The notes under the pieces: generated by a model
Told to the model about the DNA's origin: nothing
Databases searched by the model: none
The model's input: the letters and a program-made list of their open reading frames with translations, nothing else
Source of the DNA: a virus
Virus record (IMG/VR): IMGVR_UViG_3300048834_001310
Span: 1-26,185 of that record
Strand: one strand, 5' to 3'
Length of the DNA stretch: 26,185 nt
Position numbers and translations under genes: made by a program
Shown here: piece by piece, positions 9,601 through 16,981 of the stretch
How positions within the stretch are numbered: the first letter of the stretch is position 1
Layout of the letters: the number at the start of each line of letters is the position of its first letter

Positions 9601-10566
9601 TCCAGTTGACTGGAAAAACTGAGTAAATTCCTCGACCCCATCTGGACGTGTATCAATAACTTTAGGCAGTACTATACCTGATACCGGAGTTCTATGATCA
9701 AACTGGAGAGTAACTTGCTTGATCCCCTCATTAAACTCCGTGTAAGAATCTCCTGCAAGTACCCGAAGATTCGATGTATTGGCAGTAACTACCAGGTTCT
9801 CATTTGTTCGAGATACAAAATCACCGCTGGAGTTATAGGTATTGACAGGAACACTTGCAGGATTCACGTAACCAGAAATCTGATCCAGCAAGAAACAACC
9901 TTCATCAATCTTACATACCAGACCGTAGTTTGCCAGGAGTTTCTTCAATGCAAAGAGATAGGTTACCTTAACATCTTGCTGTGATTCCTCTTTTGCATAC
10001 TGACGAATAGCATGTGCATCGATGTAGATTTGCCGGAGGAAGTCATGAGCTGTGTCCGTATTTAACTCTTCCAGATCCGTCACCGTTTTGATAGGAAGAT
10101 TAAAACCAAGACCACTAAAGAGCATCGCAAAAACTTTAATGATGGTAAGACGATCACTGATTAGTGGAAAGTCAATCCCTTCCAGATCGTTGAAGTCCTT
10201 AAAAACAAGCATGGCCGAATACGGGAAACTGTCTTCATAAAATTGTGACAGATTCGGATTAAGATATCCGTGCCAGCGTTCAACCGAGTTCATTCTCCAG
10301 ACTATCTTGAAATCACGATTCTGTGATGCCTTGACTTCACCGAAGAAAAGCTCCTGTGCTGCAGAGTCAATGAGAAGTCCCATCTCTAAACGACCGTATA
10401 TCAGCCCTTCTTCTAATGGTTTTGTCGTATCCAAGGCTTCATGCTCAAAGTGAAATGGCCGTTCATTAGCATCGAGCTCGAGCACACTGCCAACATACCC
10501 GGCCTTATAGATCTCCAGCTCTTGGAAGTTGCCTTCATCATCATGATATCGAAGTCTAGCTCTCAT
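6616..10566 (-). CDS. Large tail hub / central tail fibre protein
   Basis: A 1316-residue protein encoded immediately after the tape measure gene with a TAATG overlap, the place of the tail-tip (hub) genes in siphophages. Residues about 1-330 are a mixed alpha/beta region rich in aromatic residues (WRMNSVERWHGYLNPNLSQF), plausible as a Dit/hub-like base. A long beta-rich body follows. Residues about 1003-1043 form an alanine-rich helix (SAAAQAAAELYAEDQKRA). The section at about 1070-1150 (AGTLTIGGNN, KDGIYLGAGQNAYDQ) resembles the terminal region of lambda J-type tip proteins. The end (about 1226-1316) has a fibre-like NQDVDGIKNFLKR motif and beta strands. No separate distal-tail or tail-lysin gene exists in the window, so this protein probably combines hub and fibre. 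Receptor contact by its end is inferred. Confidence 0.75.
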   Translation of the reverse strand: MRARLRYHDDEGNFQELEIYKAGYVGSVLELDANERPFHFEHEALDTTKPLEEGLIYGRLEMGLLIDSAAQELFFGEVKASQNRDFKIVWRMNSVERWHGYLNPNLSQFYEDSFPYSAMLVFKDFNDLEGIDFPLISDRLTIIKVFAMLFSGLGFNLPIKTVTDLEELNTDTAHDFLRQIYIDAHAIRQYAKEESQQDVKVTYLFALKKLLANYGLVCKIDEGCFLLDQISGYVNPASVPVNTYNSSGDFVSRTNENLVVTANTSNLRVLAGDSYTEFNEGIKQVTLQFDHRTPVSGIVLPKVIDTRPDGVEEFTQFFQSTGVERISIAGFAFTLFEELVTEIPYANIELKSGDLWWNNDLQQWQLQQYENRIDMRNAESREDFGQGRNFTARINIQTSEIPVVDSGDIVIKFFQFPSQANSHTVYRDCEFELSGSGEEESTSLQYILRQNGNYKALYNHPAFWYGDGPAQYAHSAMRFSTTTTDLTNLSWRRRGDSEWVSFAEALSKNIMDIQRVNTEKLNPTLYGNYTGRKVLLYNGNYQYYLGGTFNGQTGQFTPVLFNLNLVTDNDEFDYRLVQGPALLNGGILTAIDLARNETVEGISGYLFRLSLPIEGEVSQLVSNDLVNLDTVVLKDYKVAVSHPQTLKRVEFTVRENHQPGSNIINVIPLTIDRRYPDGSPVYISQRSVTTGLALGRNKAEFFSDLGAVAVLTQPVSGVVSSLNIYAYTLIRKGSTIAIFNEQLNQGFYAKLTETISLGEHEVGIQEELIIAPNGALVYQSTRELSARLSIEPGSVRASVEESAEENSIGRVSAVVIEGIETTQISLSSISDQVSLYDNQKLYIKRIAREDLEQVGEIINVDGDQVIGPGSGVLAIKPKTFTHSYFTITPAYVYEAGYQITSELTLRRGEILALAQYTDDLIDSVAGLELQVGDAVTDIGGLSDSLGTIGARSAMFADTNGNLAIIELLSGTISSFAGVKADQVEISGLTTFSSGYDPSTKETPTGAQNKANTAEDNAKDHADVVSAAAQAAAELYAEDQKRAARNNIASQMGYADYDAMVSEAVAGKTIINGGLLNTVLLDVVWLFAQNANVAGTLTIGGNNTSGVLKHIDGKWVIDKDGIYLGAGQNAYDQATALRVGNRIRIYGVDGDPAFDGGYFEFTDPTFLKFISQGDLVFDIASGKSVSFNRVVSSTAAASADNHFLRRVDADGRFHTQTISDSRFVRTGNNNQDVDGIKNFLKRSDFREKIRVYNSAKTNYVDLGYEGASGNRSIDFPQLSGTVLLEESFDFDGQYTVQPNEVLTVNINGTLVKIAVEV

Positions 10567-13115
10567 TAATCGTATAACCTCAATGTCTTCTGGATCTGTG
10601 CAATAAGTTTTGGATAAGAACCCTCAAGCTCACCTTTAAGATGGATAACAATTTCTTTTCTGGCAGCAGTTGGCATACTTCCGGCACCAAGCTTATGATT
10701 CGGAATGATGGTTCCAGGACCATCCGGAACAAACAACTCTGGTCCCCTTTCTCCGACTATGGAGGGAACTCCAACAGGAGGCCGCCCACCATCTGCAAAT
10801 CCTAAAAGCCCAAACAGTCCACCACCATCTCCAAAGAATCCAGTTCCTGCAGATGCCAGTCCACCGGTAAGGAAAATGGTTGAAAGCTTTTGGAATGTCG
10901 CTGAAAGAACATATTTACCCATATTCCGAAGTACTCTCATGGCATTCTCTCCCTCAATCGCAATATTTGCAAGCCCTTGACTGAATGATGATGTGAAAGC
11001 ATCCACAGCAGGACGCATGAGCTCAATACCCAGTGATATCTCTGTGCTCATTCCCGTGACCCCATTACCAGCGCCCTGGAATCCGGATCGAAGATCCTCC
11101 AACACTGATATCATAGCTCGAAGTTGTTCACGTTGTTCTGGAGTATTCGCCTCATCGAACATTCGAGAGTATTCAGAAAGCGCATCATTAACCTCTCTGA
11201 TTGAAGTTGGAATACGCCCAAGACCACCGTATGTAACCGAAATATTCATTTTTGCATCCGGAGTACCGGCAAGTAAGGCATCAAGCTCATCATTACTCAT
11301 AAGAGTCCTAGCATTTGCCAATCGTTCACGAAGTGAAATTTGCTCCTGAAGTTCTCCACGAAGTAACACAAGTCGATTAAGTTCGGCAATGTCTTCAGCC
11401 GACAGATCTTCTTTCTTATTGATAATCTTTTCAATCTGATCACTATATCTCTGTACTTCACCAGACAGACCATTGTAAGAGTTCATCAGTGGCTCAACTT
11501 CATCAAGTGCGCCCTTCAGCAACTCCTCAGCTTTAGCCAATTCGCTATTCATCTCTTCTTGAGCATTAGTCGCCTGGATGGATTCATCATGGAGCAATCT
11601 CAACGCAGTTTGGAGCTGTATAATCTGATTGATTCGAGTACGTTCAAAAGTTGGGCCAGTTGAGTACGATGCTGATGCTTTCTTTTGAAGCTCGGCTTTC
11701 TCGGCCTCTAATTTCAGAAGTTCCTCCTGGATCTTCTTACGCTCTTCCAGAGAACCGATTAACTCTTTCCCATCAAACATATCAGAACGTAGTGTGTTGG
11801 CCAATGATGTGATTTTAGTTTCTGTCAAAGAAGCTGCCACACCCAATGAGATAAGACCAGTAACAACCGCACCACCAACTACCAGCAATGGATTCTTTTT
11901 CATGGTAATCGTTAGAATCCTGATTGCTGCAGTTACTTTGGCCACACCAATGGCCGTTGGACCGGTGATCGCTGCAAAACCAGCCATCCTTGTAATCAAT
12001 CGAAGCGTATCAGAATCGAGTTCTGAGACTCGATTGATTAGATTTGTAAGTCTTCCTACCGTTTCAGTTGCGAAATCATTGATACCTTGATCAGCAAGCA
12101 CAAGATTCATTTCTTCATAAGCACCTTTCAGTTCTTCAATAGCGCCATTGAGACCCTGCATTTGCTTCTCCGCAATTTCTTTCGCAGTGCCTCCGGAGTC
12201 TCGAAGATTAGAAGTGAAATCCCTGAGAGCTTGAGAACCTCGACCTAGAAGGACTTGCATGGCTGGTCCACCCCGTTCACCAAACACTGCCATAATCTCA
12301 GCTGCCGATAGCCCTCTTTTCTCAAGATCCTGAATAATATCAGCAAGAGGACGCATTGCTCCACTGGCAGTATACACGCTTACACCAAGTTTGTCTGCTT
12401 CGCTGGAGAGCTTAACAATCACATTTCTAAGACCGGTACCGGCATTAGACCCTTGTAGACCAGCATCAGAGAGAAATCCGATCGCAGCTGTAGTTTCCTC
12501 GATGTCTACACCAAAACCCTTTGCTACCGGACCCACATACTTCATTGCTTCACCAAGCATGACAAGGTCTGTATTTGAACTTGTGAATCCTTTGGCCAAC
12601 ATGTCCACTGCACCATCCAACTGATCAGCTGTCATCCCAAAACCGGACATGATGTTTGAGGCAATATCCGCTGCAGTTGCAATATCCAGTGTTCCAGCTG
12701 AAGCTAGATTCAAGACAGCCGGCATTGAAGCAATGATGTCCTTAGTCTTAAAACCGGCCATCCCCAGAAATGTCATTGCATCAGCTGCTTCACTAGCAGA
12801 AAAGACCGTAGACTTACCCAAGTCCCTGGCAGTCTTTTCCATCATTTTGAGCTCTTCATCTGTCGCTCTAGTAATTGCTGCAACCTTGTTCATGGAAGCT
12901 TCAAAATTACCTGAAGTCCTAAGCATCAATCCACCAAATCCAAGTATCGGAAGTGTCAGCGCCTTTGTGAGCGACTTGCCTACTTTATCGGCATCTCGCT
13001 CAAATCGTTTAAGCCGCTTAATACCATTATCAAGCACCTTTTCCATCTCCTTGGAATCACCACCAAGTAGCAGGAGCATATTAGCAATTGGCGATGTTCC
13101 TCCGGATTTACTCAT
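10566..13115 (-). CDS. Tail tape measure protein (TP901-type core)
   Basis: This 849-residue protein has the conserved TP901-type tape measure core at about residues 60-260 (MLRTSGNFEASMNKVAAITRA, ATAADIASNIMSGFG, DAGLQGSNAGTGLRNVIVKL). A hydrophobic segment at about 406-428 could be a membrane-crossing piece used in DNA ejection. A long coiled-coil region follows, and the C-terminal GERGPELFVPDGPG motif (about 786-804) is typical of the family. It sets tail length and chaperones DNA passage. At roughly 1.5 angstrom per residue the length predicts a tail of about 125 nm, which is an upper guess because not all residues span the tube. Its ATG overlaps the stop of the frameshifted chaperone frame as ATGA. 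Confidence 0.93.
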   Translation of the reverse strand: MSKSGGTSPIANMLLLLGGDSKEMEKVLDNGIKRLKRFERDADKVGKSLTKALTLPILGFGGLMLRTSGNFEASMNKVAAITRATDEELKMMEKTARDLGKSTVFSASEAADAMTFLGMAGFKTKDIIASMPAVLNLASAGTLDIATAADIASNIMSGFGMTADQLDGAVDMLAKGFTSSNTDLVMLGEAMKYVGPVAKGFGVDIEETTAAIGFLSDAGLQGSNAGTGLRNVIVKLSSEADKLGVSVYTASGAMRPLADIIQDLEKRGLSAAEIMAVFGERGGPAMQVLLGRGSQALRDFTSNLRDSGGTAKEIAEKQMQGLNGAIEELKGAYEEMNLVLADQGINDFATETVGRLTNLINRVSELDSDTLRLITRMAGFAAITGPTAIGVAKVTAAIRILTITMKKNPLLVVGGAVVTGLISLGVAASLTETKITSLANTLRSDMFDGKELIGSLEERKKIQEELLKLEAEKAELQKKASASYSTGPTFERTRINQIIQLQTALRLLHDESIQATNAQEEMNSELAKAEELLKGALDEVEPLMNSYNGLSGEVQRYSDQIEKIINKKEDLSAEDIAELNRLVLLRGELQEQISLRERLANARTLMSNDELDALLAGTPDAKMNISVTYGGLGRIPTSIREVNDALSEYSRMFDEANTPEQREQLRAMISVLEDLRSGFQGAGNGVTGMSTEISLGIELMRPAVDAFTSSFSQGLANIAIEGENAMRVLRNMGKYVLSATFQKLSTIFLTGGLASAGTGFFGDGGGLFGLLGFADGGRPPVGVPSIVGERGPELFVPDGPGTIIPNHKLGAGSMPTAARKEIVIHLKGELEGSYPKLIAQIQKTLRLYD

Positions 13116-13483
13116 GATATCAGTCCAAGCTCTTTGTAACGATTAGCGATTGTTTGACCTTCAGATTTCGAGATCAATCTGATTGCTTTTTTCGGCTGTG
13201 GTACATCTCCAGGCAAGTGCCACAGTTCTTGTTCTTCAATTCTATCCTTTTTCTCCAGCTGAATATTGTACAGATAGAAAGTCATAGTCCGAATTGATTT
13301 AGCGATCAGTATTGCTCTGTCATCTTCTGCTTTAGCTTTTTCCCGACAACCGGCAATGTATGCCTTTAGCTCTACCAAGCCCATGCACCAGAACTCATCT
13401 GGTTTGAGCCCGACAGTGGCAGCGAGTTTCAAAAGTCTGGATGGTTCCCAGGCTTCGTCCCGACTGCCGGGATCTACTCCCCC
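13112..13483 (-). CDS. C-terminal extension of the tail assembly chaperone, reached by -1 frameshift
   Basis: This frame is open from just after a TGA at 13486-13484 down to 13112, about 123 codons. It has no ATG or GTG near its beginning; only a TTG at 13432 could start it independently. The segment before that TTG (DEAWEPSRLLKL) continues directly into AATVGLKPDEFW, and such a 'W-x-x-S/R-L-L-x-L-A-x-x-x-G-L-x-P-D-E-F-W' block is a hallmark of second-frame tail chaperones. The sensible reading is a fusion of the upstream chaperone with this frame, analogous to lambda gpG-T. The full frameshift product would be about 235 residues. It binds the tape measure protein during tail assembly. The stop overlaps the tape measure start by ATGA. 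Confidence 0.8.
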   Translation of the reverse strand, partial: GGVDPGSRDEAWEPSRLLKLAATVGLKPDEFWCMGLVELKAYIAGCREKAKAEDDRAILIAKSIRTMTFYLYNIQLEKKDRIEEQELWHLPGDVPQPKKAIRLISKSEGQTIANRYKELGLIS

Positions 13484-13818
13484 TCAGATTCCTCCGGATC
13501 ATCTTCATCAACAGAGTCACCATACTTTCTAGCATTGTACTCATAGAACACCTTGAGGATCTCTGTTTGCGCTTTTGGACTTTCATCCAACCATTCACAA
13601 ATAGTGATCACCTTGTGATTTACTGGTTTCCCTGCAAGTTCTGACCCGCGATCAAGTCCAGCTTTAACAAGCTGAATGATATCGGCTAAGTTCAATGAGG
13701 CCATGACCATGAGAGCGCCAAGTCTTTTTTGAGTAGCCTCGGACCATTTGTACAATGCGTACATATCAAAGACTACAGGCCTCATTGAACCGCCAATTTC
13801 AACAAAGTTTTTCACCAT
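13474..13818 (-). CDS. Tail assembly chaperone, upstream (G-like) frame
   Basis: A 114-residue acidic helical protein (FDMYALYKWSEATQKRLGAL at about 19-38). It is located between the tail tube and tape measure genes and ends in an acidic tail with Asp-Glu-Asp-Asp-Pro and Glu-Ser-Glu-Gly-Glu. The ATG at 13818 is used; a TTG two codons upstream is less likely. The stop TAG (13474-13476) follows immediately after the run of five G that marks the probable -1 slip site. Lambda G-like chaperones bind the tape measure protein and recruit tail tube subunits. Position and size fit this well; sequence identity to lambda is not obvious. Confidence 0.78.
   Translation of the reverse strand: MVKNFVEIGGSMRPVVFDMYALYKWSEATQKRLGALMVMASLNLADIIQLVKAGLDRGSELAGKPVNHKVITICEWLDESPKAQTEILKVFYEYNARKYGDSVDEDDPEESEGE
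13477..13485 (-). promoter_or_regulatory. Probable -1 programmed ribosomal frameshift window
   Basis: The zero-frame codons are GAG-GGG-GAG followed by stop TAG; the -1 frame is closed by TGA just upstream and open afterwards. The two frames are both open only across this stretch, which contains five G (13479-13483). A P-site tRNA on GGG can re-pair perfectly after a one-base back-slip. The A-site GAG re-pairs only partly, so this is an imperfect slippery heptamer (GGGGGAG) rather than the lambda GGGAAAG. Confidence 0.7.
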
Positions 13819-13820
13819 GA

Positions 13821-14234
13821 TCAAGCAGCTTTATTATTTACCGTTGGCGTTCCGGAGTTCTGAAGAGTCACACTCCACTGAACATCCTCACCATCGTTCA
13901 TATTCAGACTCCAGGTCTCAACAAGTAAAGTACCGGTGATACTTTCCCTTTGACCAACTGCAGCATCTTTGTAGAATATGGTGAACGGACTTTTTGTTTT
14001 GCCGATCATGAAAGCGATCACATCTGCAACGGTAGTATCACTAGACTTATCAAAGTTGCCATTCACGTTTACTTTCAGATCTTTCTTCGATGCTTTGATA
14101 CGCTCCCAACCCTCTGAGTCCATGTTGGTTGTATCAATTTTCTCGCTATTGATCTCGAAAGAAACACCCTTCATGTCATTCAAAGCATCAGAGTCTATCC
14201 TGAATTCAACTGCATTATCAACTAATTTTCCCAT
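13821..14234 (-). CDS. Tail tube protein-like, second copy
   Basis: A 137-residue beta-rich protein with the layout of TP901-1-type major tail proteins: an N-terminal strand, the segment EKIDTTNMDSEGWERIKASKK (about 31-51), a 'V-N-G-N-F-D' turn and a C-terminal strand ending in VQWSVTLQNSG. It follows another tail-tube-like gene of nearly equal size (14245-14649), and the two share the order of motifs (a 'Ser-x-x-x-Ile-x-Thr-Thr' element, an aromatic 'W-x-G' or 'V-N-G' turn, a long insert, and a G-x-G or N-S-G end). Either could be the major tube subunit and the other a tube initiator, terminator or decorated variant. No Shine-Dalgarno is visible before its ATG. Confidence 0.72.
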   Translation of the reverse strand: MGKLVDNAVEFRIDSDALNDMKGVSFEINSEKIDTTNMDSEGWERIKASKKDLKVNVNGNFDKSSDTTVADVIAFMIGKTKSPFTIFYKDAAVGQRESITGTLLVETWSLNMNDGEDVQWSVTLQNSGTPTVNNKAA

Positions 14235-14244
14235 GATATTTTAA

Positions 14245-14649
14245 TTAAGCTGTTACTGTTTGAACCAGTGGACCATTCCCCCGGAAAGAGATGTCCAAGG
14301 CCGAGTCAGACCCCTCCGTGTAAGCTTCTCCGTGCTTGTCAATTTTGACATTTCCAGAGTAGACCAAGTCACCAGTGGCAGGCACAGACTTGCCAATAGT
14401 TACTGATAAATCACCTCCACTTTGAACTGCAGCAAACAAAGATGTCTGCCCTACGTCAGCGAGATCCACAAGACCTGAGATAGACCCATTCCAACTTGAA
14501 CGGCCATATTCATACTCGTTATACTCGTTCTCCTTTGTTGTTGTCCTGATCAGTTTATTGGATCCAGAAAGCGACAGGTTACGACTGGCACCAACGACGT
14601 TAGCGCCGACTTTAAAAAGCACTAGTGAACCACTTTCAACATTCTCCAT
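14245..14649 (-). CDS. Tail tube protein-like, first copy
   Basis: A 134-residue beta protein starting MENVESGSLVLFKVG, with RNLSLSGSNKLIRTTTKE (about 23-40), YGRSSWNGSISGLVD (about 48-62) and ISFRGNGP near the end. This is the standard pattern of TP901-1-type major tail proteins. It has the strongest ribosome binding site of the tail module (AAAGGAG, seven bases before ATG) and is followed ten bases later by a related gene. High expression fits a main tube subunit, so I favour this copy as the major tail protein, but that is inference. Confidence 0.75.
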   Translation of the reverse strand: MENVESGSLVLFKVGANVVGASRNLSLSGSNKLIRTTTKENEYNEYEYGRSSWNGSISGLVDLADVGQTSLFAAVQSGGDLSVTIGKSVPATGDLVYSGNVKIDKHGEAYTEGSDSALDISFRGNGPLVQTVTA

Positions 14650-15932: not shown

Positions 15933-16249
15933 TAGTTTCTCCTATTACTTACTTCAGTGATGATCCGCTCGATTCGTGGCCAATCTTCACGCCAAAAGCG
16001 TAGATTTTCCGATTCAACCAGATCCATTTTTCTCTCGAGTTTGGTTACTCTATCATTGATTGCAGACTGATTGGCAATCTGTAGACGAATAGCGTTCAGC
16101 TCTTCGCGATACAACTTGCTGTCCGCTCTTAACTCAGTAATCTGAGCCGACATGTACTGAATACTTGCTACATAAACCCCGACGTTTATTGCAGCTATTA
16201 TCAGTAACTGTATGATGTTGGGAGCGTACTGTTTAATTACATTCATCAT
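15932..16249 (-). CDS. Membrane-anchored coiled-coil protein of the lysis cassette
   Basis: The preferred start is the ATG at 16249, overlapping the lysozyme stop as ATGA, giving 105 residues. One membrane segment (about 11-29, IIQLLIIAAINVGVYVASI) is followed by a long charged coiled coil (about 36-90) ending near WPRIERIITEV. One membrane anchor plus a coiled-coil outer part fits an i-spanin-like or holin-regulator protein, or a small DUF2730-type phage membrane protein. Its place directly after the lysozyme supports a lysis role, but no rz-type partner lipoprotein is seen next to it. Confidence 0.65.
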   Translation of the reverse strand: MMNVIKQYAPNIIQLLIIAAINVGVYVASIQYMSAQITELRADSKLYREELNAIRLQIANQSAINDRVTKLERKMDLVESENLRFWREDWPRIERIITEVSNRRN

Positions 16250-16668
16250 CCCACCCTCATCATCTCTGCCAGTCTCCTGGCTCTCTTTGGTGTTTGTTCT
16301 GACCACTGCGACCGTAGCATTTCTTTAGATGCATTCTCGAAGTCCCCTAGTGCTACAAAAGCCAAGGTTCTGCGAAAGCCTAAAAGACCATTAAGCCCCA
16401 GCTGGAAAGCCATGCTAATTAGCACGACCTTCCGAGCTGGAGTGAGCTGGGCGAAGTATGGTAGACGTTTTTTAAGTTCAGAGTCGACCTTCTCGATGTC
16501 GTTATGCATCAAGATTTCAGCCTCTGATGGAGTAAGTGGATTCGCCTCCAGGTTACGTCCGTAACCAATTGTCAAGTAACCCGCTGGGCACTTGTATGGA
16601 ACACCACTAAAGCCCTCATCGACTTTGATCAGTTCTCCGGCCTGTAGTATGTAATCACTCTGTGTCAT
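16246..16668 (-). CDS. Endolysin, T4-type lysozyme with E-8-C-5-T motif
   Basis: A 140-residue muramidase that cleaves the glycan chain of peptidoglycan. The T4/P21-type active site is visible: Glu18 in KVDEGF, Cys27 in VPYKCPAG in place of the usual Asp, and Thr33 in YLTIGYGRN, with exactly eight and five residues between them. The Cys variant is a known alternative in this family. Further along are SEAEILMHNDI and the C-terminal WSEQTPKRARRLAEM helix typical of the fold. No signal peptide or membrane segment is present, so it needs a holin. The start at ATG 16668 overlaps the upstream stop by 14 bases; an in-frame start further right would bury much of the adaptor gene and lacks support. 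Confidence 0.93.
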   Translation of the reverse strand: MTQSDYILQAGELIKVDEGFSGVPYKCPAGYLTIGYGRNLEANPLTPSEAEILMHNDIEKVDSELKKRLPYFAQLTPARKVVLISMAFQLGLNGLLGFRRTLAFVALGDFENASKEMLRSQWSEQTPKRARRLAEMMRVG

Positions 16669-16981
16669 CGATATATGCGCGAATAATGGTGTATTCTCCG
16701 TTGTCCGTTGGAATAGCCGAATCAATTCGATACTCCTTACCTTCACATTCAAGTACATCGGTTTTTTTGATGTCGTCGTTACGCCTGGTAGAGAAGATCG
16801 GTCTCTGGGACACGCTCTCAACCCTACCATTTACATTTCTTTTCTCTTCACGAAACTGCAGCCTAGCCCAGAATTCATCATAGTTGACAAACACTGGCTT
16901 TGCTTGACCATTCACGTTTGATGTAGAAGTCACTCTTTTCTGAATGACACGCTTATCAAATTGGTGTGATGTGATAATCAT
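16655..16981 (-). CDS. Head-tail adaptor (head closure) protein
   Basis: A 108-residue protein matching the head-tail adaptor family (SPP1 gp16-like). It has FDKRVIQKRVTS near the start, NYDEFWARLQF (about 33-43), then SQRPIFSTRRNDDIKKTDVL and a late EYRIDSAIPTDNGEYTIIRA strand. These proteins close the head after packaging and present the surface that tails join. It lies directly after the connector with an ATGA overlap, the normal order in HK97-like heads. Confidence 0.85.
   Translation of the reverse strand: MIITSHQFDKRVIQKRVTSTSNVNGQAKPVFVNYDEFWARLQFREEKRNVNGRVESVSQRPIFSTRRNDDIKKTDVLECEGKEYRIDSAIPTDNGEYTIIRAYIDDTE

What the first reader, a model, noticed from the sequence alone, without database searches (positions are those of the whole stretch)
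13474..13490. Tail chaperone made by -1 frameshift at GGGGGAG
Zero frame ends in TAG right after a five-G run; the -1 frame is closed just before and open just after it, and its conserved W-x-x-x-R-L-L block precedes any ATG or GTG. The window for slipping is only nine bases. The heptamer is imperfect compared with lambda GGGAAAG, so an unusual P-site-driven slip is implied.
Basis: partly seen in the sequence, partly recalled or inferred. Interest (0 to 1): 0.62.

Follow-up and report, generated by a model that had tools for sequence, protein, structure and literature searches.

The report
Phage tail chaperone made by frameshifting
This tailed phage almost certainly makes its two tail-assembly chaperones from one message by letting a few ribosomes slip back one base, a long-known trick; the slip site GGGGGAG is a close cousin of one (GGGGGAA) already reported for about a thousand phage chaperone genes, so it is ordinary with a small twist.

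Summary
On the minus strand the zero frame ends GAG GGG GAG TAG (13485-13474); the -1 frame has TGA at 13486-13484 and is then open to 13112. Upstream lie two tail-tube-like genes and downstream the tape measure gene: the classic G / GT tail-assembly-chaperone order. The upstream protein is a G chaperone (profile E 8.6e-12 with homologues; fold match to annotated tail assembly chaperones, E 1.7e-5). The -1 frame encodes a T domain (E 2.4e-4 with T proteins chosen by position alone), whose conserved start lies before any ATG, GTG or TTG. In two homologous G/T pairs (L080, L066) a canonical A_AAA_AAG sits in the same phase directly before TAG, where the window has G_GGG_GAG. Within 7,743 codons of the window's genes, G_GGG_GAR occurs only here. 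The heptamer is not exotic: GGGGGAA is reported for about a thousand actinobacteriophage chaperone genes, explained by G:U re-pairing of the Glu tRNA, and I found it at three more G/T junctions. GGGGGAG differs only in the wobble base, so a special P-site-driven slip is not implied. No paper found in the held library names GGGGGAG. The fusion was not observed; a 235-residue GT is inferred. New member of a known kind, low interest.

The parts
13474..13818 (-). G gene: tail assembly chaperone, zero frame, 114 aa from ATG 13818, ends TAG
   Evidence: profile of homologous G proteins E 8.6e-12; AlphaFold model pLDDT 83.8 matches annotated phage tail assembly chaperones.
13477..13483 (-). Slippery heptamer G_GGG_GAG in X_XXY_YYZ phase, enclosed by the -1 frame TGA (13486-13484) and the zero-frame TAG (13476-13474)
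   Evidence: only in-frame G_GGG_GAR in 7,743 codons; same place and phase as A_AAA_AAG in L080 and L066.
13112..13483 (-). T frame, open -1 frame; after the slip it adds about 121 residues (from GTA 13477) to give a GT fusion of about 235 aa
   Evidence: PF09550 Phage_TAC_6 E 6e-4, under the curated cut-off; T profiles E 2.4e-4 (chosen by position) and 4.3e-9 (all).
13458..13472 (-). Possible stimulator: hairpin UCCCG-GCAGU-CGGGA starting 4 nt after the heptamer
   Evidence: the 30-nt fold is among the most stable 0.6% of windows of this record, but z is only -1.5 against shuffles; weak evidence.
13491..13495 (-). Possible stimulator: GGAGG, Shine-Dalgarno-like, 7 nt before the heptamer
   Evidence: Read from the sequence; not tested, and only 9 of 28 genes of the window carry such a motif before their start, so its role is doubtful.
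10566..13115 (-). Tape measure protein gene; its ATG overlaps the T-frame stop (ATGA)
   Evidence: PF10145 E 3.7e-47.
13821..14234 (-). Tail tube protein gene upstream of G
   Evidence: PF06199 E 9.7e-7.

Best explanation
G and T encode the tail assembly chaperones of a siphovirus-like tail. Most ribosomes read G and stop at TAG, giving a 114-residue G protein. A small share, with peptidyl-tRNA-Gly on GGG and tRNA-Glu on GAG, slip back one base together: Gly re-pairs perfectly with GGG, Glu re-pairs with GGA through G-C, U:G and U-A. Reading goes on as GTA GAT CCC, giving a 235-residue GT fusion with the junction S-E-G-E-V-D-P. By the lambda model, G and GT bind the tape measure protein and the T part recruits tail tube subunits. 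Shown here: the two frames, the enclosed heptamer, G and T homology, gene order, and canonical slip sites at the same place in homologues. Inferred: that slippage happens, its rate, tandem rather than P-site slip, any role of the hairpin or GGAGG, and the function in assembly.
For: Sequence and frames. Gene order tail tube, G, T, tape measure. G homologues L080, L066, L072, L073, L075-L077 with T in the -1 frame and A_AAA_AAG at or 3 nt before the TAG stop. T homology from profiles, including the part before any start codon, which adds about 7 bits; a T-frame relative passes the PF09550 cut-off (L059). G model fits annotated tail assembly chaperones. GGGGGAA in the same role: PMC10885494, PMC5506516, L061, L086, L089, L093. 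G_GGG_GAR unique in the window's genes.
Against: No peptide or reporter data. No close relative was found, so conservation of the G run itself could not be tested. The heptamer fails the strict X_XXY_YYZ rule. The window T scores below the curated PF09550 cut-off (20.6 against 23.4 bits). The downstream fold is not beyond shuffles.
Confidence: 0.9

Rival explanations
1. Only the P-site tRNA slips: either Gly on GGG before GAG is read (fusion ...E-G-G-V-D) or Glu on GAG while TAG waits in the A site. The fusion is still made.
For: GGG to GGG is a perfect P-site re-pairing; TAG ends this gene alone among 28 listed, and a stop directly after the heptamer recurs in L010, L064, L066, L080, L113, L116 and L120.
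Against: Tandem re-pairing is possible through one G:U pair and is the explanation proposed for GGGGGAA (PMC10885494). A stop right after the site is also found with fully canonical heptamers.
Confidence: 0.2
2. T is made as a separate protein from TTG 13432 or another start, with no frameshift.
For: TTG starts occur in the mechanical ORF list; T genes of some phages are annotated as separate genes.
Against: TTG 13432 is residue 18, inside the conserved block; residues 8-17 add about 7 bits to the T profile match. Homologues have the same slip-site layout. No Shine-Dalgarno-like motif stands directly before TTG 13432 in the sequence.
Confidence: 0.05
3. Assembly error: the true run has six Gs and G-T is one continuous gene.
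For: The record is an uncultivated virus contig, and one added G would join the frames.
Against: Homologous and position-equivalent G/T pairs are also split by a -1 step; a continuous GT would be against the rule for this gene pair; a five-G run is short for such an error.
Confidence: 0.03
4. RNA polymerase slippage on the G run, not ribosomal slippage, makes the fusion.
For: A homopolymer run is present.
Against: Five bases is short; known transcriptional slippage uses longer runs (PMC3711429 gives about 8 or more A or T).
Confidence: 0.02

Closest known systems
Lambda G / GT tail assembly chaperone frameshift (GGGAAAG), conserved across tailed phages (Xu, Hendrix and Duda 2004, cited in PMC5009743)
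   Same: Gene order, -1 direction, slip near the end of G, T domain in the -1 frame without its own early start
   Different: Heptamer GGGGGAG instead of XXXYYYZ; zero-frame stop directly after it; T domain resembles PF09550
Actinobacteriophage 'fivetwo' motif GGGGGAA (PRFect, PMC10885494) and corynephage phi16 (PMC5506516)
   Same: Gly GGG then a Glu codon in the same phase; the same G:U re-pairing on GGA; phi16 also reported with an upstream SD-like element and downstream structure
   Different: Glu codon GAG instead of GAA; no detectable relationship of G or T by the searches run here; structure here weak
G/T pairs of viral contigs L080, L066, L072 (this work)
   Same: Homologous G protein, T in the -1 frame, slip site at or next to TAG
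   Different: A_AAA_AAG instead of G_GGG_GAG

Membership tests
G/GT programmed -1 frameshift of phage tail assembly chaperones | Two overlapping frames between the tail tube and tape measure genes | tested here: met
G/GT programmed -1 frameshift of phage tail assembly chaperones | Downstream frame is -1 and lacks its own start before the conserved T domain | tested here: met
G/GT programmed -1 frameshift of phage tail assembly chaperones | G protein is a tail assembly chaperone | tested here: met
   By homology and fold only: homologues in the same gene place and fold match to annotated chaperones
G/GT programmed -1 frameshift of phage tail assembly chaperones | Slippery site in phase in the overlap | tested here: met
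   G_GGG_GAG, of the GGGGGAA type
G/GT programmed -1 frameshift of phage tail assembly chaperones | Both G and GT are made, GT as the minor product | not testable with these tools
   Needs peptides or a reporter
Strict X_XXY_YYZ slippery heptamer | XXX and YYY triplets | tested here: not met
   GGGGGAG; positions 4-6 are GGA
Pfam PF09550 Phage_TAC_6 | Score over the curated cut-off | tested here: not met
   20.6 bits against 23.4; called TAC_6-like only. Relative L059 passes with 32.2 bits

The most novel reading that the evidence does not exclude
GGGGGAG is an undescribed efficient -1 shift site that works by combining a middle-position G:U re-pairing of tRNA-Glu with the UAG stop set directly after it, in a phage lineage not visibly related to the actinobacteriophages where GGGGGAA is common.
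Probability: 0.25. Interest if true: 0.3.

Novelty: new member of a known kind. Interest (0 to 1): 0.17.

Why it matters
It adds one more phage lineage that uses a G5-Glu slip site, and it suggests that G_GGG_GAR rather than GGGGGAA alone should be in frameshift finders; strict XXXYYYZ searches would miss this GT protein. It does not change what is known of tail assembly.

Tried and rejected
Direct searches with the G or T protein in viral contigs, genome contigs, phages and plasmids found no true relatives. Terminase and portal relatives led to phages with other tails, such as BgVeeders33, and were dropped. Profile comparison of the window T with the L080/L066/L072 T set alone gave nothing, and an HMM of that set plus L120 put the window T only second among the window's ORFs; the broader T set did better. 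The PDB second look gave no match above Z 3.3, which is no evidence against the fold. RNA structure downstream is not beyond shuffles in the window or in homologues. Automatic G/T calls include some spurious pairs, so no overall percentage is quoted from it. A text search for GGGGGAG with frameshift found no paper. Considered and rejected: separate T start, assembly error, transcriptional slippage.

Full report
What is there. The window is an uncultivated virus record of 26,185 bases with a head and tail gene cluster on the minus strand: terminase, portal, capsid, two tail-tube-like genes, G, T, tape measure. At 13485-13474 the zero frame reads GAG GGG GAG TAG. The -1 frame is closed by TGA at 13486-13484 and then open to a stop ending at 13112, which overlaps the tape measure ATG at 13115. 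Between the two stops lie exactly seven bases, GGGGGAG, in the X_XXY_YYZ phase, so the slip, if it occurs, can only occur there.

Is it more than chance? Runs of five Gs are not rare in the window (12 against 22 expected). But in 7,743 codons of 28 listed genes the in-frame motif G_GGG_GAR occurs once, at this place, and X_XXY_YYZ 26 times. TAG ends only this gene among the 28.

Is T real? The -1 frame has no ATG, GTG or TTG before TTG 13432, which is residue 18. It matches PF09550 Phage_TAC_6 with E 6e-4, under the curated cut-off. A tape measure alignment pulled in 80 viral contigs. A profile of T proteins picked from these by gene position alone finds the window T frame best among all its ORFs with E 2.4e-4; with T proteins picked by similarity added, 4.3e-9. 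The second figure is partly circular, the first much less so (the set was still picked by eye). Cutting T at the TTG loses about 7 bits (31.5 to 24.8), so the conserved domain extends into the stretch that has no start codon.

Is G a chaperone? Contigs L080, L066, L072, L073 and L075-L077 carry homologous G proteins (phmmer E 4e-7 to 3e-6; profile E 8.6e-12). The AlphaFold model (pLDDT 83.8, pTM 0.77) best matches 'Tail assembly chaperone protein' of Siphoviridae sp. ctqpo8 (E 1.7e-5, TM 0.71), with more chaperones further down the list. The annotation of those records is itself probably by prediction.

The slip site in relatives. L080 and L066 read AAA AAA AAG TAG, L072 reads AAA AAA AAG GTT TAG, with T in the -1 frame. 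So where the window has G_GGG_GAG against TAG, its homologues have the canonical A_AAA_AAG in the same phase. Among less related G/T pairs the slip site also stands directly before the stop in L010 (AAAAAAG), L012, L064 and L120 (AAAAAAC), L113 (GGGAAAC) and L116 (AAAAAAA). GGGGGAA is found at the junction in L086 (GAG GGG GAA TCC TAA), L089 and L093.

Known or new. PRFect (PMC10885494) reports GGGGGAA in about a thousand motifs of SEA-PHAGES chaperone genes and notes that the second tRNA (CUU) can rebind GGA if G:U pairing is allowed; those sites were inferred by annotators, not tested one by one. Corynephage phi16 is reported with GGGGGAA (PMC5506516), and I confirmed the phase in its record. 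GGGGGAG changes only the third base of the Glu codon. A Glu tRNA with U at the wobble position would even gain a U-A pair on GGA; this last point is reasoning, not a test. No paper in the held library names GGGGGAG with frameshift. The heptamer therefore fails the strict XXXYYYZ definition but belongs to a recurrent class, and no special P-site mechanism is needed, although it is not excluded.

Stimulators. A 5-bp hairpin starts four bases after the heptamer, and a GGAGG lies seven bases before it. The hairpin region is among the most stable 0.6% of 30-base windows in the record but not unusual against shuffles. Nine of 28 genes have an SD-like motif before their start. I give both elements little weight.

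Verdict. A programmed -1 frameshift making a GT fusion of about 235 residues (114 of G plus 121 of T) is very likely. It is a new member of a known kind with a slightly unusual heptamer. Production of the fusion was not observed.

Noticed in passing
13821-14234 and 14245-14649: Two neighbouring genes on the minus strand both match the tail tube family PF06199; possibly a duplicated tail tube gene.
   Followed up: no
16246-16830: An ORF with a lysozyme-like stretch (GYLTIGYGRN) starts well inside the next upstream gene (16655-16981); its real start is probably further downstream.
   Followed up: no
L002 (7,732 bases): A contig from IMG/VR encodes a terminase identical at 100% to the window's, so the same or a nearly identical virus was probably assembled twice; it does not reach the G/T region.
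   Followed up: partly
13474-13476: TAG is the stop of only one of 28 listed genes, this G gene; G homologues L080, L066 and L072 also end in TAG.
   Followed up: partly
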